Source of the DNA: Clostridia bacterium | Lineage (GTDB): Bacteria; Bacillota; Clostridia; Oscillospirales; RGIG8002 | Direction of reading: 5' to 3' | DNA length: 55,490 nt | NCBI GenBank assembly: GCA_017620395.1 | Contig: JAFZQJ010000014.1 | Location: forward strand, 1-55,490 | In this document: piece by piece, positions 6,115 to 50,288 of the stretch | How positions within the stretch are numbered: position 1 is the stretch's first letter | Layout: each line of letters opens with the position of its first letter | Translations under genes and position numbers: made by a program | Notes under the pieces: generated by a model | What the model was told of the DNA's origin: nothing | The model's input: only the letters and a program-made list of their open reading frames with translations | Database searches by the model: none

Positions 6115-6342
6115 GTGACAAGAATCAAGATCGCGCTGACGACAATCAACGACGTGAAAGCCTTCGTCGACGCCGTGAGCCGCTGCGACTTCGCAGTCGA
6201 CCTTTCCGGCGGACGCTACACCGTGGACGGCAAGTCCATCATGGGCATATTCAGCCTCGACCTTTCCCAGCCGCTCGACCTGCTCGCCTACACCGACGAT
6301 CCGGCGTTCGCGGAAAGCATGGCTCCGTTCGCGGTCGAATAG
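6115..6342 (+). CDS. HPr-family protein lacking the phosphorylated histidine
   Basis: A 75-residue protein with the HPr-like fold signature: a central DLSGGRYTVDGKSIMGIFSLD stretch that aligns with the Ser46 region of HPr and its IMG(I/V) follow-on. The protein contains no histidine, so it cannot act as a standard PTS phosphocarrier at His15. Similar histidine-free HPr-like proteins are frequent in Clostridia and may have a regulatory role. The start is a GTG at 6115 with AAAGGAGG eight bases upstream; reading further upstream would pass through the promoter. It lies 58 bases before the carboxypeptidase gene. Function is not known. Confidence 0.82.
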   Translation: MTRIKIALTTINDVKAFVDAVSRCDFAVDLSGGRYTVDGKSIMGIFSLDLSQPLDLLAYTDDPAFAESMAPFAVE

Positions 6343-31174: not shown

Positions 31175-33799
31175 CTACGCGAGCTTCGCGGCGCGGCGCA
31201 TGATGCGCAGCGTGTCTGAAACAGTCGCTTCGCCGTCGCCGTCAATATCGGCGAGGCGCTTTTCGGAATCGTAGTATTCCTTCGGGTCGATAGCCATGCG
31301 GAGCGAGGCGAGCGCGTCGGTAACGGTGACTTCGCCGTCGCCGTCAACGTCGCCCTCCGGACGCCGGACGGCGTCCTTCAGCTCCGGATACACCGTCGCC
31401 ATCGCGTAGGCGATCCACGAGGAGTGCTCCTGGTTGCCGACGTCGGAGAACCTGTTCGGGTACCACCAGCTCTCCGGGTACATATTGCTCGCCGGAGAGT
31501 TCATGAGCATGAACTCGGTCATTTCGTCGACGCGCGCGGTATCGCCTATAGCCGCGCTGAACATCAGTTCCCACGAATACCCCTTGCCGATGACGTGGTT
31601 GCCGTAGCGGCCGCTGTCCATATAATAGCAGGCGTCGAGCATCGGGTACGCGCCGTAGTTGACAGAAGCGATCTCGCGGTACGCCGCGAAGGTATCCCTC
31701 ATTATCTGCTCGTCCATGCCGTACCATCCGGCCGCGATCGGAGCGAGATTAACCCACGACATACCCTTGATGAATCTATCGCCGTTCGCGATATCGATCA
31801 GCTCCGCGTAAACGCGCTTGCCGTTGACCTCGGTGACGAGCGTTTCGTTGATCCCGCCGCGGATGCGCTCGGAGAGCGCGTTCCACTTCGCCGCTTCTTC
31901 GGCGTTGCCGAGCGCGGAGTCGAACTCCGCGAATTCGTGGAATACCTGCGAGGCGTAGGCGTTGGTTATCAGGTCGTAGCACTCCCACTTCCTTCCGTCG
32001 CGGGTGTGCTCGAGGTAGTCGTTGCGGATGAGATCAAGCTCGCCGTCTATGAAGCCGCCTTCAACGTAGGCGTTGACGTACTGCTTGATTATCGGATAGG
32101 ACTGCGCGATGAACTCCGCGTCCTCGGGCGTTCCCGGAGCCGCGTTCGCGTAGGCGAACCACGCGTGCGCGAGCACGAGGATGGTATCCGTCTGCGCCTC
32201 ATCGCTCCAGAACTTGGCGTCCGTCTTGAACGCCTCGTAGGACGCTTCTCCGTTTATCGCGACGCCGTTGACCTTCGTTATCAGTCCCTTGTAATTCTTG
32301 CGGCCGTACCACACCACGCTGTCTTCGTCGGAGTCCGGCGCGGATACTGTCAGCGTGTAGTTTCCGGTCGTGACGGGGTTAAGCGGCAGACCGAATTCAA
32401 ACACGACGTAGCCCTTTGACTCGGGCAGCTCCGAGGCCTTGAGCTTCACCTTTCCGACGGTGAAGCCGTCGCGGCTCAGCTCTGCGTTTACCATACCGCG
32501 GGCGCCCCTTCTGCGCGACATCCACACGCCGACAGAGGTCACCGTCGCGTCGGCGCCGCTTATCTCCTGCGAGGCGTAAGCGCTTCCGCCGAGCTTTATC
32601 AGAGCGCTGTACTGTCCCGGACCCGCGCCGGCGTTGTTGCCGTATTCGGTTTCTCGCAGGTCGGAGATTATATGCGTCGGAAACTCCATGCCGCTGTAGC
32701 GGTATACCCCGAGGACGTAGTTGAGCAGGCGGCGCGAAAGGTCGGTGTCGCCCTGATTGGTATGCATCAGCGACTGTATCGACGTGTCGCGCACGAACAT
32801 GCCGTCGTAAAGCCCCGTTACCGACGTCGGCGAGTAGCCGGACGCGGTTATGCGGTCTTTCATAGAGTTATACGAATTGACGTAAAGCTCGCGGAGCAAT
32901 ACCGGTTTGAGAAGCAGAGTCAGCGTTCTGACCTGCTCTTTTTTCTGCGCTTCGGTGCCGTTCGCGAGAACGTTTCTCGCCGTCGCGAGCTCTGAAGCGT
33001 AACTGCCGTCGGCGTCGTATTCCTCGAGCTTCGTTATAAGCTCATCGAGCCCTCTGCCGGACGGCGGCTCCTTATAGAACTTGAAGTCGGATATGTAATA
33101 GGTTGCTCCGGTGTTTATCTTCTGATTGCCGAATATTATGTCTATGGAGTTGAACTTTGAGAATTCCTCGCGAAGACTCCCCTGTTCCCACCAGACGTAG
33201 CCGCCGTGCAGGACTCCGAACTCCACCTTGACGTAACCGTTCTTATCCGGGAACAGCGTTGACGTGCGGTAGTACGGACCGATGCCGTATTGGTCGTAGA
33301 TCGCCTGATGCTCCGCATCGCCCTCGAAGCCGTATGGACCGCCGCAGGGCGAATGACGCATGATCACGACCACGTCGTCGGCGTAGCCGTCCACGCGGAA
33401 CATAAAACCGTCGTACGCGCTCATATCAATTCCGCCGTTGAAGGTCTTGCCGCCGACGTCGGCCAGTCCGTCGTAAAAAAGCTCGTCCTTGACGTGCAGG
33501 TGGCGCGAGGTCGAAACCACCTTCAGCCCGGTCGATAATACGTTGAGCTTCAGCGCGCGCGGGATACCCTGCCCGGCGAGCTCGTCGGTGAAGTCCGCGG
33601 TGCGCGTATCAAAACCCGTCATATACAGCTGCGAAAGCTCCGACTTATCGAACTGTTCAAACGCCGGAAACGGCGTGAAATCGTAGCCCTCGTAGGCGTC
33701 GGGCTTCTCCTCCGCCTTCGCGTGAGTACGCGGCGCGGGAAGCGCGACGCACCCGAGCGCAAACAGGCATATAAGCATTATGGCGAGCGCGATTTTCAT
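31175..33799 (-). CDS. Secreted glycosidase-like protein with C-terminal dockerin
   Basis: An 874-residue exported protein. A signal peptide (about 1-29, cleavage near AHAKA-EE) precedes a jelly-roll, CBM-like region (about 50-245) and a helical region. A catalytic-looking alpha-helical barrel follows, with YDGMFVRDTSIQS near 327 and a C-terminal half containing GKGYSWELMFSAA and GNQEHSSWIAYA. The whole resembles six-hairpin glycosidases (GH63/GH78/GH125-like), but I cannot fix the family. Two type I dockerin repeats end the protein (DVDGDGEVTVTDAL and DIDGDGEATVSDTL, about 813-872), which bind a cohesin in the presence of calcium. GGAGG precedes the ATG. Confidence 0.85.
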   Translation of the reverse strand: MKIALAIMLICLFALGCVALPAPRTHAKAEEKPDAYEGYDFTPFPAFEQFDKSELSQLYMTGFDTRTADFTDELAGQGIPRALKLNVLSTGLKVVSTSRHLHVKDELFYDGLADVGGKTFNGGIDMSAYDGFMFRVDGYADDVVVIMRHSPCGGPYGFEGDAEHQAIYDQYGIGPYYRTSTLFPDKNGYVKVEFGVLHGGYVWWEQGSLREEFSKFNSIDIIFGNQKINTGATYYISDFKFYKEPPSGRGLDELITKLEEYDADGSYASELATARNVLANGTEAQKKEQVRTLTLLLKPVLLRELYVNSYNSMKDRITASGYSPTSVTGLYDGMFVRDTSIQSLMHTNQGDTDLSRRLLNYVLGVYRYSGMEFPTHIISDLRETEYGNNAGAGPGQYSALIKLGGSAYASQEISGADATVTSVGVWMSRRRGARGMVNAELSRDGFTVGKVKLKASELPESKGYVVFEFGLPLNPVTTGNYTLTVSAPDSDEDSVVWYGRKNYKGLITKVNGVAINGEASYEAFKTDAKFWSDEAQTDTILVLAHAWFAYANAAPGTPEDAEFIAQSYPIIKQYVNAYVEGGFIDGELDLIRNDYLEHTRDGRKWECYDLITNAYASQVFHEFAEFDSALGNAEEAAKWNALSERIRGGINETLVTEVNGKRVYAELIDIANGDRFIKGMSWVNLAPIAAGWYGMDEQIMRDTFAAYREIASVNYGAYPMLDACYYMDSGRYGNHVIGKGYSWELMFSAAIGDTARVDEMTEFMLMNSPASNMYPESWWYPNRFSDVGNQEHSSWIAYAMATVYPELKDAVRRPEGDVDGDGEVTVTDALASLRMAIDPKEYYDSEKRLADIDGDGEATVSDTLRIMRRAAKLA

Positions 33800-33834: not shown

Positions 33835-36800
33835 TCACTTCTTCGTCAGGCGCATGACGTAAAGTCCCGTAGCGGGCTGATTCATACCGAACATAACGCG
33901 CTTGCCGGAGCAGAACGAAACGCTCTCCACCCAGTTCCCCGAGTCGTCGGCGACGGTGACCGCTTCAAGCAGCGTTCCGTCGCTGCGGTAGGTGCGGACG
34001 GAGCCGTCGTAGGAGCAGGCGGCGATCATACTGCCGTCCTTGGAGACGTCGACGTCGCGGACGAGGGAACCGTAGCCGCCCATCAGCGAATAGAGCCTGC
34101 CGGTGGAAACGGTGAAGATACGCAGGTCTCCCGATTCGGACGCGCAGACTACGCGTCTGCCGCCGTCAAGGAAGCGCACCTTCGTCACCGGCGCGGTGCG
34201 GGTGTTCTTCATCTTGTTTACGCGGGCGCCGGAAGCGGCGTCCCAGACGATGACGTTGCCGTTCTCGTCGGAGGTGACGAGGCGGGAGCCGTCCGCGGTC
34301 AGATCTATGCCTCTGACGGCGGACGTGTGTCCGGTCAGCGTGTGGCGGAGCGCGAAGCTCGAAGCGTCGTAAATCTGCACTTTGGAGTTGCCGAGCGCGA
34401 GCGCGACGGTGTTGCCCGCCGCGGCGACGGCGCGGATGTCGCTCTCGAGATCGACCTGCTTGACCTTGTTGCCGGAGGCGTCGAAGACGAACATGGCGCG
34501 GGAATAGCTCGACTGGTCGTCGTAGTTCCTGCCGCCGGCGACGACGTATTCGCCGTTGCCGGTGAAGGCGACCGCGTCGTGGTAGACGTGGTAGTTATCG
34601 ACGTCCCACGCGATAAGGTCTTCCGTCTCGCAGAAAGTCAGCACGCCGTCGCGGGAGCCGGCGACGAGCATCTTGCCGTCCGGAGAGAAGGCGGCGCAGG
34701 TATAGATCTTGCCCTTTCCCTTCATCTCGCCGAGCAGCTCGGACTTCTTGGCGTTGTAAAGCTTGATATCGCCGCCTCTGCCGACGACGGCGGTGTATTT
34801 GCCGTCCGCCGAGGTAACTATAGCCTTGACGCGGTCGCTGCCGAGGTTATGCACGGTGGCGGCTCCGGCGTCGGCGGAGAAGTTCGCGGTCTGCGAAACC
34901 TCGCCGCTGCGCTTGTAGAAGCGGACGTAGTCCACGTAATAATACGACGTATCCGGCATACCGTCCGGCAGCTGATCGTTGCCGGGGCCGGAAACGGAGG
35001 TGTTCAGTATCAGGAAGTGCGGCTGAGCGCCGAAGCCCCAGCGCATGGAGTCGCTGTTGACGTTCAGCGTCATATATAGCATCCCGTCGACGAGTATCCT
35101 CACCTGCTCGGAATCCCATTCCGCGGAGTAGACGTGGTATTCGTCGCTGAGCAGCTTGTCGCGCGAGATCGGGAAGTTGTAGTTCTTCGACATATGGTAG
35201 CCCTCGTCGCCGAACCAGTGGAGCGTTCCGTAAAGGTTATGCCCCTTGACGATGCCCTCCTCGGTGCTGTTCTCGGCGTCGACCCAGCCGTTTTCCATAA
35301 TGTCTATCTCGCCGTCGTGCGGCCATATGCTCTCGGCGCCCATCATCCAGATCGCGGGCCAGATGTACGCGCCGCCCGGGACCTTCGCCCTGACGTCGAC
35401 GCGGCCGAAGGACTGACCGTATTTGCCGGAGGTCTCGAGCGAGGCGCTGGTGGCGTGGTAGCCCTTGTATTCCTCGATCTTGCTCTTGATGACGAGGTTG
35501 CCGTTTTCGATATAGTGATTGTTCTCGCTGTCGCGGTAATAGATGGGCTCGGTATCGCCGCGCGTTTTGCCGTCGGCGGGAGTCCACATCGAACGGTCGA
35601 GCTTTTCGCCGTCGAACTCGTCCGCCTTGACAAGCTCCCACGCGCCGTAGTCGTACTCCGTCAGCTTCATAGAGCCGCCGGTGCCCTTCTTCAGCACCGC
35701 CTTGGCGCTCAAGGTCGCGAGCGAGTAGGCGTCGGCGTAGGTTATCGCGAAGTTTCCGCCGCCGAGCGGCTTGACGCCGAATTCCTGCTTGGCGTTCGTC
35801 ATATCCGCCTCCTTCATGAAGAGGTCGAACTCGACGTTGGTGGTCAGCGCGAGGCCGGTGCCCTTGTTGACAATGCGGTAGGCGCCGGAGGCGCATTTGT
35901 ATATCTGCCACAGCTGGGTGTCGTCGCCGACGTCCTGGGTGAAGGTCAGCGCCTGGTTATCGTCGTGCATGACGAGCGTTTCCGCCCATTTGAGCTGGCG
36001 CTCGGTTATCGCGGGCCCGTAGGTCAGAACGGTGCCGCGGGAATCGGTTATCTTATAGAACTTTTCGTTTGAAACGGAGGAAGCCGTGTGGACGTAGACG
36101 CCGCCCTTCGCGGTCTCCAGCGTTTCGGCGTACGCCGCGAGGTTCGATACGTAGCACTCGCCGTCAGCCGCGAAGGCGATCGAGTTTATCGAAGGCAGCA
36201 CATCGATGAGATACGTTCCCTCCGCGCCCTTGAATAGATCGAATGAAACGCGGATATCCGACGCCTGCGCCGGAACGGGCAGGTCGGCGGCGAAGGCGGT
36301 CTCGCCCGCCTTCAGCGTTACGGTAAGTCTGCCGGACGGGGCGGCGGCTTCAAAGTGAAACGTCAGTCCCTCCGCGTTCGCGAGCGCACCGCCGAAGGGG
36401 TCTCCGTCGGAGGCCGCGCTGCCGGTGAACTTAACCGCGTCGGCGGTGCCGTCCGGAGCGGCGGAGCGTTCCGCGGCGGTGAACGCCGCGAGTCCGGGGA
36501 TCCCGACGGACTCGAACGCGCCGTCCTTCAGCGCGGCGACGGCGCGGCCGATATCGGCGATGGAGTTCTCCATATCGGAGGACTTGCATTCGGGGTCGTC
36601 GTAATGGCGTTTCGCGTTATCCACGGCGCCGGTCAGGTATTTTCTCGTCTGCTCGTCGGCGTTGCCGAAGATAAGCGGCTCCGCTTCCGCGATCTTCGCG
36701 GCGAGAGGCGCTTTGTCGTCGACGGGCTTTACCTGCTGTTCCTCACCGGAGGACGCGGCGCTTTCGCTGCCGCCTCCCTCTTTCGCGGAACAGGCGGCAA

Positions 36801-36849
36801 AGGATAAACACATTATCAGCGCGAGGAGCGCGGCTGTAAATCTTCTCAT
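33835..36849 (-). CDS. Lipoprotein GH16 glycoside hydrolase fused to a WD40 propeller
   Basis: A 1004-residue protein. A lipoprotein signal with lipobox FAAC (Cys20) suggests anchoring outside the membrane. A helical stretch (about 45-110), a beta-sandwich-like part (about 112-240) and a ricin-like trefoil (about 265-395, QLWQIYKCASGAYRIVNKGTG) precede the GH16 domain (about 400-655). The GH16 catalytic signature is intact, GEIDIME with Glu514, Asp516 and Glu519, as in beta-1,3 or beta-1,3-1,4 glucanases and related enzymes. Residues 663-1004 form a WD40 propeller of about seven blades, e.g. GHTSAVRGIDLTADGSRL. The next gene upstream, 13 bases away, is a paralogue. AAGGAG precedes the ATG. 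Confidence 0.92.
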   Translation of the reverse strand: MRRFTAALLALIMCLSFAACSAKEGGGSESAASSGEEQQVKPVDDKAPLAAKIAEAEPLIFGNADEQTRKYLTGAVDNAKRHYDDPECKSSDMENSIADIGRAVAALKDGAFESVGIPGLAAFTAAERSAAPDGTADAVKFTGSAASDGDPFGGALANAEGLTFHFEAAAPSGRLTVTLKAGETAFAADLPVPAQASDIRVSFDLFKGAEGTYLIDVLPSINSIAFAADGECYVSNLAAYAETLETAKGGVYVHTASSVSNEKFYKITDSRGTVLTYGPAITERQLKWAETLVMHDDNQALTFTQDVGDDTQLWQIYKCASGAYRIVNKGTGLALTTNVEFDLFMKEADMTNAKQEFGVKPLGGGNFAITYADAYSLATLSAKAVLKKGTGGSMKLTEYDYGAWELVKADEFDGEKLDRSMWTPADGKTRGDTEPIYYRDSENNHYIENGNLVIKSKIEEYKGYHATSASLETSGKYGQSFGRVDVRAKVPGGAYIWPAIWMMGAESIWPHDGEIDIMENGWVDAENSTEEGIVKGHNLYGTLHWFGDEGYHMSKNYNFPISRDKLLSDEYHVYSAEWDSEQVRILVDGMLYMTLNVNSDSMRWGFGAQPHFLILNTSVSGPGNDQLPDGMPDTSYYYVDYVRFYKRSGEVSQTANFSADAGAATVHNLGSDRVKAIVTSADGKYTAVVGRGGDIKLYNAKKSELLGEMKGKGKIYTCAAFSPDGKMLVAGSRDGVLTFCETEDLIAWDVDNYHVYHDAVAFTGNGEYVVAGGRNYDDQSSYSRAMFVFDASGNKVKQVDLESDIRAVAAAGNTVALALGNSKVQIYDASSFALRHTLTGHTSAVRGIDLTADGSRLVTSDENGNVIVWDAASGARVNKMKNTRTAPVTKVRFLDGGRRVVCASESGDLRIFTVSTGRLYSLMGGYGSLVRDVDVSKDGSMIAACSYDGSVRTYRSDGTLLEAVTVADDSGNWVESVSFCSGKRVMFGMNQPATGLYVMRLTKK

Positions 36850-36862
36850 CTCGTTCTCCTTG

Positions 36863-39640
36863 TCAAATATTCCAGACGCAGTAGTCGGTATTCAGAATGC
36901 CCATCGCCGCAAACAAACGCGAGCCGTCGGCGGAGAAGGCAATATCCATGACCCATCTGCCCTTGGGGTTGTCGGTGCGGAGCGCAGTCAGATAAGCTCC
37001 GTCGCCGTCGAAAAGTCTGACGCTGCCGTCGTAGGAAGAAACGGCGATGCGCTTTCCGTCCGGCGAGAACTTCGCCTCGCTGACGAGCTCGGCGAAGCCG
37101 CCGAGCGTCGCGGACTGAGTTCCGGTCGCGGAGTCGAACAGGCGGGCGCAGTTATCCGCGCAGACCGCGAGCAGACTCGAGCCGTCCGGTGAGAAGCGCA
37201 CGCGGCGCACAGAGGACGGGTTGACCTTGCCGGCGGCGCACACCTTCTTTTTCTTCAGGTCGCAGAGGTATATTCTGCCCGCCTCGTCGGAGAAAGCGAG
37301 GGAACCGTCCGGCGCGAAGTCGACTCCGCGCATCGCGGCGCCGTCTTCGTTATCGAAGCGGAATACCTGCGTCAGCAGCGGCAGCTCGTAAACGCGCGCG
37401 CTGCCGTCCGAGCAGACAGCGGCGGCGAGTTTGCCGTCCGCGGAAACCGCGGCGTTTCTCACGTCGCTGCCGGTCGCGGCTTCTGAAATCAGCGCTCCGT
37501 CTACGCCCCAGAGGCGCAGGACGCGGCTTTCCTTCGCGTTCGGCCTGCCGCGCTCGATCGTGTCTCTGCCGCCGGCGAGGAAGGCCTTGCCGTCCGGCGT
37601 GAAGGCGGCGAACTCGTTGAAGGTGCCGGCGTCGTCGATGACTAGCGGCGCCTTCGTGAAGTCGGCGCAGTCGTAGATGAATATTTCTCCGTCGCGGTTC
37701 GGCACACAGAGCCTGCTCCCGTCCGGAGTGAAGGTGATCGCCTCGACGGCGACCTCCGGCTCGCGCAGCGTGAAGAGCAGCTCGTCTTTATGCTGCCCGT
37801 AGACGAAGACCTCTCCGCCCTGCCCCGCGGCGGCGGCGTATCTGCCGTCCGGAGAGGCGCAGACCTTGTTGAGCCATTCGCGCGCCGCGCCGTTGACGTA
37901 GTCGGGCGCTTTCGCGTCTTCGACCGGTTCGGCAGCGCAGGTCACTTCTCCGGCGCGCTTGCAGCAGCGCACCCAGTCGATATAATAGAGCGATTCGGCC
38001 GGCGTTTCGGGATACGCCTTCTCTTCACCGGGGCCTCTGACGGAGGTGTTGAGAATGAGGTAGTGCGGGTTGTCGCCGAAGCCCCATTTCTTGCCGTCGG
38101 AGTCGAGGTGCATCGCCATATAGAGCATATCGTCGGTGTAAAGGCGCAGGTGGTCGTATTCCCACTCCGCCGCGTATGTGTGGTAGCGGTCGTTGAGATT
38201 CTCGTAATCCTTGAAGCAGAAGTCGACGCCTTTCTCCATGTGCTTGCTGACCTCGGTCGCCCAGTGGAGCGTGCCGAAGAGCTTGGAGTCCAGCTCGCCG
38301 TGTTCGCCTCCGCCGACGAGCTCCATGACGTCGATCTCGCCCTGGTACGGCCAGTTGCCGACGATGCCCATCGACCAGAACGCGGGCCATATCCACGCGC
38401 CGGTGGCGAGACGCGCGCGCATCTCCATCTTGCAGTAGGTAACGCCGTAGAGCCCGCGCGTATCCATATACGCGCCGGTCTGCGGGATGCCGTCGTATCC
38501 GTCGCCGGAGGTGCGGATGACGAGGTTGCCGTCTTCCGTCCAAAAGTTCTCCTTGCGGTCGAGGAAATAGACCGGCTCGGTATCCGGCCTTATCTTTTTG
38601 TTATAGACGCCCCATACGCTCCTGTCGAGCTCCTCGCCGTCAAAGTCGTCGCGGAAGGTTTCCACCCATTCGTCCTCGGCGATCTCGAAGAGCGCCCAAA
38701 CGCCGTCCTTGCAGTTCTCGCAGGTCAGTGGCCTGCCGCCCTCGCCTATTATCGAGAACTTGCCCGGGCCGGCGGGCAGCAGGTCGAAATCCTGCGACGG
38801 ACAGTTCATATTGACGTCCGTCGGGAAGGGCTTGCCATGCTCGTCGAGCTGGATATGATTGGCGTTGGATTTGTTGATAACGTGGTATTTGCCGTATTCG
38901 GTCTTATAGAGCTGCCACTCCTGCGTATAGTCGCGGGCGCGCTTCTCAAGCGCGAGGTGCTGTCCCTTGTCGGTGTGGATCAGCGACTGCTCCCAGCGCA
39001 GGTCGGTCTCCTTTATGCGCGGGACGAGCGCGAGGGCGCGTCCGGTCGCTATATCGACGATCTTATAGAACCTGTCGTTGCGCGTTTCCGTAACGGGATC
39101 CTCGGAGTAAGGCGTGCGGAGATCCGGCTCTACCTGCTCGCTGAAGAAGCAGAGCGGCGTTACGCGCACTTCGACGTCCTCGTCGGACTCAAGCGCGACG
39201 ACGATGCGCTCCGCGCGCCTGACCGCGGGAACGAAAAGATCGTAAGTCAGCCAAAACGTCGTCTTCTCCTGTGAAAGTCCGATGCCCTCGATATAGGAGA
39301 ATCCGGCGTCGGAACCGACGCCTACGGTCAGCGTCGCGTCGCCGCTTCTGCCGTCGTACTCGACCTCGAGCGCGATGCCGTCGCAGGGCGCGGCCTCACG
39401 CATCGGGAAGTCGGCGGACTTTCTGCCGCCGGCGGCGACGGTGATGATTTCAGGCAGCGCGCCTTCCGTCCGCTTCGTCTTCGCGGGGCGGACGCTGTTC
39501 ACCGCGCGGTGAAGCCCGTTCAAAACGGCGCGGTCGCCGGACGCTTTTTCGGCCTCCGCTATGCAGCGGCGCAGGTTCTTCCTGCCGCGTTCGGCTATGC
39601 CGGAGCAAAGCAGCGCCTTCTCTGTCGCAAATCGTTCCAT
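36863..39640 (-). CDS. GH16 glycoside hydrolase fused to a WD40 propeller, no signal peptide
   Basis: A 925-residue paralogue of the protein encoded just downstream, with the same order: helical N-terminus, beta-sandwich-like part (about 65-180), ricin-like trefoil (about 190-330), GH16 domain (about 335-575) and WD40 propeller (about 585-925). The catalytic signature is intact, GEIDVME with Glu435, Asp437 and Glu440. No signal peptide or membrane helix is present: the start MERFATEKALL is charged, and AAGGAGA sits eight bases before this ATG. Either it works inside the cell or leaves by a non-standard route. It follows ilvE by 40 bases and precedes the lipoprotein form by 13, so all three are probably read together. 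Confidence 0.9.
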   Translation of the reverse strand: MERFATEKALLCSGIAERGRKNLRRCIAEAEKASGDRAVLNGLHRAVNSVRPAKTKRTEGALPEIITVAAGGRKSADFPMREAAPCDGIALEVEYDGRSGDATLTVGVGSDAGFSYIEGIGLSQEKTTFWLTYDLFVPAVRRAERIVVALESDEDVEVRVTPLCFFSEQVEPDLRTPYSEDPVTETRNDRFYKIVDIATGRALALVPRIKETDLRWEQSLIHTDKGQHLALEKRARDYTQEWQLYKTEYGKYHVINKSNANHIQLDEHGKPFPTDVNMNCPSQDFDLLPAGPGKFSIIGEGGRPLTCENCKDGVWALFEIAEDEWVETFRDDFDGEELDRSVWGVYNKKIRPDTEPVYFLDRKENFWTEDGNLVIRTSGDGYDGIPQTGAYMDTRGLYGVTYCKMEMRARLATGAWIWPAFWSMGIVGNWPYQGEIDVMELVGGGEHGELDSKLFGTLHWATEVSKHMEKGVDFCFKDYENLNDRYHTYAAEWEYDHLRLYTDDMLYMAMHLDSDGKKWGFGDNPHYLILNTSVRGPGEEKAYPETPAESLYYIDWVRCCKRAGEVTCAAEPVEDAKAPDYVNGAAREWLNKVCASPDGRYAAAAGQGGEVFVYGQHKDELLFTLREPEVAVEAITFTPDGSRLCVPNRDGEIFIYDCADFTKAPLVIDDAGTFNEFAAFTPDGKAFLAGGRDTIERGRPNAKESRVLRLWGVDGALISEAATGSDVRNAAVSADGKLAAAVCSDGSARVYELPLLTQVFRFDNEDGAAMRGVDFAPDGSLAFSDEAGRIYLCDLKKKKVCAAGKVNPSSVRRVRFSPDGSSLLAVCADNCARLFDSATGTQSATLGGFAELVSEAKFSPDGKRIAVSSYDGSVRLFDGDGAYLTALRTDNPKGRWVMDIAFSADGSRLFAAMGILNTDYCVWNI

Positions 39641-48599: not shown

Positions 48600-50288
48600 A
48601 TGAAAAAACTCAAAACGTTCATAGCGATCCTGATATGCGCCGCGTTGCTGCCGGCGCTTCCCGCCTTGCGCTCTGCGGCGTATGACGGAAGTATTTATAT
48701 AAACAACATAGAAGAACGCGCCTCTTCGCTCGGCATCACGGAGGAGCAGCTGACGGAGCTGGTCGGATACTTAAACGATTCGCTCGCCGCCTGCCGCATA
48801 AGGCTTGACGTTTCATCATACGGCATAGACAGCAACCAGGCAAATGTGATCATGATCCGCGATTTTATTTCCGATAACCCGAAGGCGTTTCACGTTTCCA
48901 ACGTGCGCTATGCGGTCTCCGGCGGCAAAATCGTAAGTTTTATCATTTCATACAAGACCGACATAAACGGATACCTCGAGCAGCTCGCGGAATGCGACGC
49001 CGTAGCCGAACGGCTCACCGAGGGCATTACGCCCGATATGCCGGAAGCTCTGAAGGTACTGCTCGTTCACGACAGGCTGATAACCCACTGCCACTATTCC
49101 GAGGACTACGACTACGAGAACGGCAGATACGCCGACGACGACTACAACGCCTACGGCGCGCTCGTGGGCGGCAAGGCGATATGTCAGGGTTACACGCTCG
49201 GGCTTTCGTACCTGCTGGACTACGTCGGGATAAACAGTTACACCTGCGCCTCCGACAGACTCCTCCACGCCTGGAACATAGTTATCGTCGACGGCGAGAA
49301 ATACCACGTCGACGCCACGTGGGACGATCCTCTTTTCGATATTCCCGGCAAAGTTGGACACTGGAACCTGCTCTCGTCGAGCGACAAGCTCTACGCCTCC
49401 TATCCCACCGCGCACAACGCGGATGACTACGACGTCTCCCCCGTTTCCGTGCTTTACAACAACCGCTCATGGTACGGTTCGCAGTCGCAGTTCTGCCTGC
49501 TCAACGGCGAACTGTATTACATCGATAACACTGCCGCGGCGCTCTGCTCATATGATTATGATTACGACGCGTCCACGTACATTCTCGACCTTTCCGACTA
49601 CTTTTGGCCGGCTGGCCCGTATTCCGCGTGGAACGGCAACTACTCCCGCCTCGCCTGCGACGGTGAATACCTCTATTTCTCGTTGCCGGACGGCATATAC
49701 CGCTACGACCCCGCCAGAGACCGCGTCGAAACCTTCTTCACGCCGAATATGTCCGGACACGATTACTTCTCCGTTTACGGCTTCACGATGGAGGACGGAC
49801 TCCTGACCTGTCTCGCGGCCGCCACGCCGAACCTCCGCAACGAAACCGAAAAGGAATACTACACCTACCGTTACGCCGCTTCGGCCGACGCCGAACCGGT
49901 CGTCAGCGGAGTCGAACAGGGCGGCGTTTACGACGCGCCCGTAACGATAAGCTGGGACGTCGGCGAAGGAACGCTCGACGGCTCGCCCTTCGATAACGGC
50001 GGAACCGTTTCCGACCCCGGCGAGCACGTTCTCGCGGTCGTCAACGGCGGCAAGGCGGTCACGCTGACCTTCACGATAAACGCCGCGCAGCAGATGAAGG
50101 GCGACGTCGACGGCGACGGAGAGATCACCGTTGCGGACGCGCTCTCGGTGCTCCGCGTCGCGGCGAGGCTCGCGCCTTCGACGCCGGAAATGCTCGCCGC
50201 CGGCGATATCGACGGCGACGGCGCGATCACGGTAGCGGACGCGCTGTCCATCCTGCGCGTAGCCGCGAAGCTTGTAACGAGTTTGTGA
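48600..50288 (+). CDS. Secreted transglutaminase-like protein with dockerin
   Basis: A 562-residue exported protein. A signal peptide (about 1-27) precedes a helical region and a transglutaminase-like domain (about 120-255) with the full triad: Cys195 in AICQGYTLG, His223 in HAWN and Asp238 in HVDATW. Such bacterial domains act as peptidases or amide-transfer enzymes on proteins or cell-wall peptides. A beta-propeller-like part follows (about 285-430, repeated YY/YD strands), then an Ig-like part (about 437-496). Two type I dockerin repeats close it (DVDGDGEITVADALSVL and DIDGDGAITVADALSIL, about 500-562). GAGGGGTGAGC precedes the ATG. It probably docks to a cohesin scaffold. Confidence 0.9.
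   Translation: MKKLKTFIAILICAALLPALPALRSAAYDGSIYINNIEERASSLGITEEQLTELVGYLNDSLAACRIRLDVSSYGIDSNQANVIMIRDFISDNPKAFHVSNVRYAVSGGKIVSFIISYKTDINGYLEQLAECDAVAERLTEGITPDMPEALKVLLVHDRLITHCHYSEDYDYENGRYADDDYNAYGALVGGKAICQGYTLGLSYLLDYVGINSYTCASDRLLHAWNIVIVDGEKYHVDATWDDPLFDIPGKVGHWNLLSSSDKLYASYPTAHNADDYDVSPVSVLYNNRSWYGSQSQFCLLNGELYYIDNTAAALCSYDYDYDASTYILDLSDYFWPAGPYSAWNGNYSRLACDGEYLYFSLPDGIYRYDPARDRVETFFTPNMSGHDYFSVYGFTMEDGLLTCLAAATPNLRNETEKEYYTYRYAASADAEPVVSGVEQGGVYDAPVTISWDVGEGTLDGSPFDNGGTVSDPGEHVLAVVNGGKAVTLTFTINAAQQMKGDVDGDGEITVADALSVLRVAARLAPSTPEMLAAGDIDGDGAITVADALSILRVAAKLVTSL

What the first reader, a model, noticed from the sequence alone, without database searches (positions are those of the whole stretch)
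33835..39640. Tandem GH16-WD40 fusion proteins with ricin-like modules
Two adjacent genes encode the same rare architecture: beta-sandwich-like part, ricin-like trefoil, intact GH16 catalytic domain (GEIDIME, GEIDVME) and a WD40 propeller of about seven blades. WD40 propellers are uncommon in bacterial secreted hydrolases, and a GH16-WD40 joint is not one I know as an established family. The propeller could be a binding or sensing platform for the glycan or for partner proteins. The pair sits 13 bases apart beside a dockerin-bearing glycosidase-like gene, which suggests a small glycan-attack locus.
Basis: partly seen in the sequence, partly recalled or inferred. Interest (0 to 1): 0.75.

Follow-up and report, generated by a model that had tools for sequence, protein, structure and literature searches.

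The report
Genus-wide family of glucanase-WD40 propeller fusions
A small group of uncultured bacteria (two of the four species are known from the rumen) has joined a sugar-chain-cutting enzyme to an eight-bladed WD40 propeller, a module rarely seen in this phylum, and multiplied the combination to about fifteen genes per genome, most of them carrying the plug that docks enzymes onto a cellulosome-like surface complex.

Summary
Both window genes (33835-36849 and 36863-39640, minus strand, 13 bases apart) encode a helical part, a beta-sandwich, a ricin trefoil, a GH16 domain with intact ExDxxE and a WD40 propeller. Structure prediction for the 1004-aa protein gives a closed propeller with EIGHT blades, not seven, and a laminarinase-like GH16. 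The pair are 2 of 15 such fusions in this 1.93-Mb genome, plus one catalytically dead, TM-anchored copy at the end of an ABC-importer gene run. Every WD40 hit in the genome lies in one of these ORFs. All four genomes of the genus carry the family; none of roughly 1,150 other Bacillota genomes sampled has the fusion. Thirteen of the 15 carry dockerins; the genomes have 52-73 dockerin hits each. The window pair are the exceptions: a putative lipoprotein and a leaderless protein, neither with a dockerin. GH16 and WD40 are both under purifying selection. Most likely these are endo-beta-1,3(4)-glucanases whose propeller is a binding platform; activity and the propeller's ligand are inferred, not shown. 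I found no description of GH16-WD40 in the open literature searched.

The parts
33835..36849 (-). GH16-WD40 gene, 1004 aa, putative lipoprotein
   Evidence: ORF with RBS, Pfam GH16 and WD40, AlphaFold pLDDT 84.8
36790..36849 (-). lipoprotein-like leader ending LSFAAC (residues 1-20)
   Evidence: sequence; similar in orthologues; not tested by a predictor
36532..36714 (-). helical part, residues 46-106
   Evidence: three helices in the model
36115..36528 (-). beta-sandwich-like part, residues 108-245
   Evidence: strands in the model; no convincing family match
35644..36111 (-). ricin-type trefoil, about residues 247-402
   Evidence: PF14200 over cut-off in the isolated domain
34900..35643 (-). 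GH16 domain, residues 403-650, catalytic E514, D516, E519
33844..34860 (-). eight-bladed WD40 propeller, residues 664-1002
   Evidence: 32 strands; Z 40.5 to TBLR1
36863..39640 (-). GH16-WD40 gene, 925 aa, no signal peptide
   Evidence: ORF with RBS; same start in four species
39125..39490 (-). beta-sandwich-like part of the 925-aa protein
   Evidence: alignment to the 1004-aa protein
38672..39124 (-). ricin-type trefoil of the 925-aa protein
   Evidence: alignment
37931..38671 (-). GH16 domain of the 925-aa protein, GEIDVME
36866..37888 (-). WD40 propeller of the 925-aa protein (not folded here)
   Evidence: PF00400 87.6 bits; alignment
31175..33799 (-). neighbouring dockerin protein with a six-hairpin glycosidase-like match
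   Evidence: PF00404 and PF17389 over cut-off; follows the pair in relatives whose contigs extend that far

Best explanation
The two genes are members of a genus-specific, vertically inherited family of laminarinase-type (GH16) endo-beta-1,3(4)-glucanases that gained an eight-bladed WD40 propeller, probably once, and then duplicated to about 15 copies. Thirteen copies end in dockerins and should plug into a cellulosome-like surface complex; the 1004-aa window protein should be tethered as a lipoprotein; the 925-aa one has lost its leader and probably acts in the cytoplasm; a sixteenth copy has lost its catalytic glutamates and sits membrane-anchored beside a sugar-importer gene run. In each enzyme the GH16 domain cuts beta-glucan, while trefoil, sandwich and propeller hold either the glycan or a partner protein close to the active site. 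Shown: domains, predicted folds, catalytic residues, dockerins, distribution, purifying selection. Inferred: substrate, lipid anchoring, cytoplasmic location of the 925-aa protein, single origin of the joint, and the propeller as a binding platform (glycan or protein, about equally likely).
For: Pfam domains over cut-off. ExDxxE in all 15 paralogues and in every orthologue that covers the site. AlphaFold pLDDT 84.8, pTM 0.84; propeller Z about 40, GH16 Z 29.7 to laminarinase PtLam. All 26 WD40 hits in the genome lie in ORFs with a GH16 hit. Fusion in 4 of 4 genus genomes and no match over both halves elsewhere in order, class and phylum samples. GH16 and WD40 trees give the same orthologue groups for nearly all copies, with duplications older than the species. 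dN/dS of the pair 0.05-0.13 (GH16) and 0.07-0.25 (WD40). Dockerins in 13 of 15; 52-73 dockerin hits per genome; cohesin proteins, one with a C-terminal TM segment and one with two cohesins plus a dockerin. The dead copy keeps trefoil and propeller under purifying selection.
Against: No biochemical data. The most conserved WD40 columns across paralogues are mostly of structural type (D, G, S, A, R), so no shared binding site stands out. Residues around the GH16 cleft differ between paralogues, so not all need cut the same glucan. Cohesin-dockerin pairing was not tested. The leaderless 925-aa protein does not fit a purely surface system.
Confidence: 0.6

Rival explanations
1. The propeller is only a rigid spacer or stabiliser, carrying no specific ligand.
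For: Conserved columns across paralogues are mainly structural; the propeller evolves faster than GH16.
Against: Within orthologues the propeller is under purifying selection (dN/dS 0.07-0.25), and it is kept with the trefoil in a copy that no longer has an active site to space.
Confidence: 0.2
2. The family is chiefly a capture and uptake system: the dead, membrane-anchored copy beside the importer genes is the receptor for beta-glucan fragments, the lipoprotein and the leaderless copy handle captured and imported fragments, and the dockerin copies release them.
For: The dead copy follows two permease-type genes, a DUF5696 gene and a solute-binding protein on the same strand and is conserved in four species with both catalytic glutamates lost; noncatalytic GH16-derived binding proteins exist in GH16_4 (PMC6827312).
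Against: The importer's substrate is unknown; the topology of the dead copy rests on one hydrophobic segment; no link between those genes and the window pair other than homology.
Confidence: 0.25
3. The joint is an assembly or binning artefact (foreign or chimeric contigs in a metagenome assembly).
For: The relatives are metagenome assemblies, and all four genomes are in tens to hundreds of contigs.
Against: The same paralogues, and the same gene order around the window pair, recur in separate genomes including goat and water-buffalo rumen assemblies; a branched-chain aminotransferase-like gene sits beside the pair in all four.
Confidence: 0.02

Closest known systems
GH16_3 laminarinases (T. 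maritima laminarinase 3azx, Planctomycetes PtLam 8xph, SCLam 6xof)
   Same: Catalytic fold, ExDxxE, conserved His after it, WPA...W...WP loop; best sequence and structure matches.
   Different: About 30% identity; no WD40 propeller is mentioned for GH16 in the subfamily paper and none was found in the GH16 matches of other genomes.
Eight-bladed WD40 propellers (TBLR1, Rsa4, Fbw7/Cdc4, designed Tako8)
   Same: Closed eight-bladed WD40 fold with N-terminal strand closure, Z 36-40.5.
   Different: Those are eukaryotic intracellular or designed proteins; these are bacterial, mostly exported and fused to a glycosidase; 14-20% identity.
Cellulosomal dockerin-bearing glycoside hydrolases
   Same: 13 of 15 paralogues end in or carry type I dockerin repeats; the genome has cohesin proteins.
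   Different: The window pair have no dockerin; no large multi-cohesin scaffoldin was seen; no described cellulosomal enzyme with WD40 was found.
Noncatalytic GH16-derived binding proteins (GH16_4)
   Same: Loss of catalytic residues with the domain kept, as in the dead copy (PMC6827312).
   Different: Those are eukaryotic and not known to carry a propeller; the dead copy here sits beside ABC-importer genes.

Membership tests
GH16 | match over the curated Pfam cut-off | tested here: met
   46.5 and 42.6 bits against 22
GH16 | ExDxxE catalytic motif | tested here: met
   E112, D114, E117 of the alignment invariant in all 15
GH16_3 (laminarinase subfamily) | WPA...WXX...WPX loop (PMC6827312) | tested here: inconclusive
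   Window pair: WPAIWMM...WPH and WPAFWSM...WPY; the third-motif residue is outside the listed set, and the L015/L016 paralogues lack the last WP
GH16_3 (laminarinase subfamily) | conserved His on the strand next to ExDxxE | tested here: met
   T542-x-H544 invariant in the alignment
GH16_3 (laminarinase subfamily) | endo-beta-1,3 or 1,3(4)-glucanase activity | not testable with these tools
   needs enzyme assays
WD40 propeller | WD40 repeats over the Pfam cut-off | tested here: met
   88.5 and 87.6 bits against 27
WD40 propeller | closed propeller of four-stranded blades | tested here: met
   32 strands, eight blades, Z 40.5 to TBLR1 for the 1004-aa protein; the same for the dead copy. Predicted models; the 925-aa protein was not folded.
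Cellulosomal enzyme (type I dockerin) | dockerin domain in the window pair | tested here: not met
   no dockerin in either window protein
Cellulosomal enzyme (type I dockerin) | dockerin domain in the 13 paralogues | tested here: met
Cellulosomal enzyme (type I dockerin) | binding to a cohesin | not testable with these tools
   cohesin proteins are present; binding needs experiment
Ricin-type trefoil lectin | RicinB match over the cut-off | tested here: met
   28.3 bits against 25.6 for the isolated domain of the 1004-aa protein; 18 of 19 members match at E up to 0.1

The most novel reading that the evidence does not exclude
WD40 propellers have been recruited in this genus as an extracellular docking or glycan-recognition module of a cellulosome-like system, giving an interaction layer beside cohesin-dockerin, with a dead GH16-WD40 protein as the beta-glucan receptor of an importer.
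Probability: 0.3. Interest if true: 0.8.

Novelty: new variant of a known kind. Interest (0 to 1): 0.62.

Why it matters
WD40 propellers are rare in Firmicutes (5 proteins in 364 species in PMC5587647), and here they appear about 15 times per genome, all joined to one enzyme type. If the propeller binds glycan or a partner, it is a new way of aiming or assembling biomass-degrading enzymes in gut bacteria, and it can be tested with single proteins. The dead copy offers a natural control for separating binding from catalysis. The family is also a compact set of diverged putative beta-glucanases for enzyme work.

Tried and rejected
Artefact or misassembly: rejected because the pair and its neighbours recur in four species. 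A single freak fusion: rejected, 15 intact copies plus one dead. WD40 as an unrelated genome-wide feature: rejected, all WD40 hits fall in GH16 ORFs; the one other WD40-bearing genome in the order sample (G491) has a WD40 protein whose 25 listed Pfam matches are all propeller families, no GH16. An alternative start giving the 925-aa protein a signal peptide: rejected, no leader in the upstream frame and the same start in four species. Cysteine content as a clue to location: uninformative. Paper searches for WD40 with GH16, laminarinase, dockerin or CAZyme gave no description of this fusion; the GH16 subfamily paper does not mention WD40 or propeller. The N-terminal sandwich matched nothing convincing by sequence and was not folded alone. 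The neighbour 31175-33799 had no PDB match by sequence. In the structure list of the dead copy only propellers appear; the absence of a GH16 row there says nothing.

Full report
OBSERVATION. The window holds two minus-strand genes, 33835-36849 (1004 aa) and 36863-39640 (925 aa), 13 bases apart, each preceded by an AAGGAG-type ribosome-binding site. Pfam finds Glyco_hydro_16 and WD40 above the curated cut-offs in both. The catalytic strands read GEIDIMEN and GEIDVMEL. A ricin-type trefoil lies before the GH16 domain (PF14200 in 18 of 19 family members; profile match to ThreeFoil). Before that come a beta-sandwich-like part with no convincing family match and a short helical part.

FOLD. AlphaFold2 on an alignment of 34 paralogues and orthologues gave mean pLDDT 84.8 and pTM 0.84 for the 1004-aa protein. 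Residues 665-1000 contain 32 strands, that is eight four-stranded blades, with an N-terminal strand that closes the ring as in WD40 proteins. The best structural matches are eight-bladed WD40 domains: TBLR1 (Z 40.5), Rsa4 (40.3), Fbw7 (38.4), Tako8 (38.0), rmsd 2.3-2.5 over 313-332 residues. The GH16 domain matches laminarinase PtLam at Z 29.7 and T. maritima laminarinase by sequence at 1.5e-31. The 925-aa protein was not folded; its architecture rests on Pfam and on alignment to the 1004-aa one.

GENOME-WIDE FAMILY. The window's genome (1.93 Mb, 98.7% complete) has 18 GH16 matches. Fifteen lie in ORFs that align over the whole GH16-WD40 core with ExDxxE intact; two are stand-alone enzymes of 242 and 244 aa; one is a dead copy. 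All 26 WD40 matches in the genome fall in ORFs with a GH16 match. The core is 27-37% identical between the 1004-aa protein and its paralogues, so the copies are old. Trees of the GH16 and WD40 halves, built separately, show largely the same orthologue groups across four species, with duplications older than the species; a few groups differ, and deep branching was not tested statistically. One joining event followed by duplication is the simplest reading.

DISTRIBUTION. The fusion is in 4 of 4 genomes of the genus. Samples of 394 order, 391 class and 398 phylum genomes (overlapping; roughly 1,150 distinct genomes) gave no match spanning both halves outside the genus; other genomes match the GH16 half or, more weakly, the WD40 half. 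In the last three searches only the three best candidates per genome were scored. WD40 itself is found in one of 113 other genomes of the order at E below 1e-6. Two relatives are rumen assemblies, goat and water buffalo; the source of the window's own genome is not stated. A published survey counts 5 WD40 proteins in 364 Firmicutes species (PMC5587647).

CELLULOSOME-LIKE SETTING. Thirteen of the 15 fusions carry dockerin repeats; several also have FIVAR, BspA-type LRR or Ig-like parts, and one a C-terminal PnrA-like domain. The four genomes have 52-73 dockerin matches each. Cohesin proteins in the window's genome: one with a leader, a cohesin and a C-terminal TM segment; one with two cohesins and a dockerin; one with LRR, dockerin and cohesin; one with cohesin, an Ig-like part and dockerin. 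The modules other than cohesin and dockerin were read from the sequence. Cohesin-dockerin binding was not tested.

THE WINDOW PAIR. They are the two intact members without a dockerin. The 1004-aa protein begins with a lipoprotein-like leader (LSFAAC; similar in orthologues) and a low-complexity linker. The 925-aa protein begins MERFATEKALLCSG in all four species, directly at the helical part, with a good ribosome-binding site and no leader upstream. It probably works in the cytoplasm; that is inference. The pair keep their place next to a branched-chain aminotransferase-like gene in all four genomes, and next to the dockerin gene in the relatives whose contigs extend that far. One orthologue of the 1004-aa gene (G001) is interrupted by an in-frame stop. 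dN/dS for the pair: GH16 0.05-0.13, WD40 0.07-0.25.

THE DEAD COPY. L018:4165-6483(-), 773 aa from its start codon, has an N-terminal hydrophobic segment, the trefoil, a GH16 remnant with RVDVFD in place of ExDxxE, and an eight-bladed propeller. It is 75-85% identical across the four species and under purifying selection. Upstream of it on the same strand lie two ABC permease-type genes, a DUF5696 gene and a solute-binding protein; Pfam confirms one permease (PF00528), the other was recognised by its sequence only. In GH16_3 only 0.7% of members lack catalytic residues, and GH16_4 includes noncatalytic binding proteins (PMC6827312). A binding or receptor role is the likely reading.

MECHANISM. 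I commit to: endo-beta-1,3(4)-glucanases whose trefoil, sandwich and propeller hold glycan or partner proteins near the active site, displayed mainly through cohesin-dockerin contacts. Catalytic residues, dockerins, predicted folds and selection are shown; substrate, location of the 925-aa protein and the propeller's ligand are inferred. The most conserved propeller columns across paralogues are mainly of structural type, so the ligand may differ between paralogues.

NOVELTY. GH16_3 enzymes, WD40 propellers and dockerin enzymes are each well known; their union as a multiplied, genus-specific family is not described in the open papers searched. Subscription literature, UniProt and phyla other than Bacillota were not searched. 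I therefore rate it a new variant of a known kind.

Noticed in passing
L018:4165-6483(-), with L018:6494-8786 and L099:714-10678: Catalytically dead, TM-anchored GH16-WD40 copy following two permease-type genes, a DUF5696 gene and a solute-binding protein; the dead copy is conserved in four species.
   Followed up: yes
L013:14591-19852(+): A GH16-WD40-dockerin protein with a C-terminal PnrA/Bmp-type substrate-binding domain (PF02608, 1.6e-27), kept in two of three relatives.
   Followed up: partly
L086, L088, L089, L090 and genome-wide: A cellulosome-like system (64 dockerin hits, 5 cohesin hits in 4 proteins) in a 1.9-Mb genome.
   Followed up: partly
L015:2-2872(+): Three CBM_4_9 stretches, an endonuclease/exonuclease/phosphatase domain, Big_3 and a dockerin in one protein.
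   Followed up: no
L012 and L017: Two paralogues at contig ends share nearly identical N- and C-terminal stretches but differ in the middle: recent conversion, duplication or an assembly effect.
   Followed up: no
L065 near 6209-6211: The goat-rumen orthologue of the 1004-aa gene is split by an in-frame stop.
   Followed up: no
window 48600-50288(+): Another dockerin protein (562 aa) with no other Pfam domain.
   Followed up: no
L019:3972-5457(-): Two tandem stand-alone GH16 genes without signal peptides, the only other GH16 genes of this genome.
   Followed up: no
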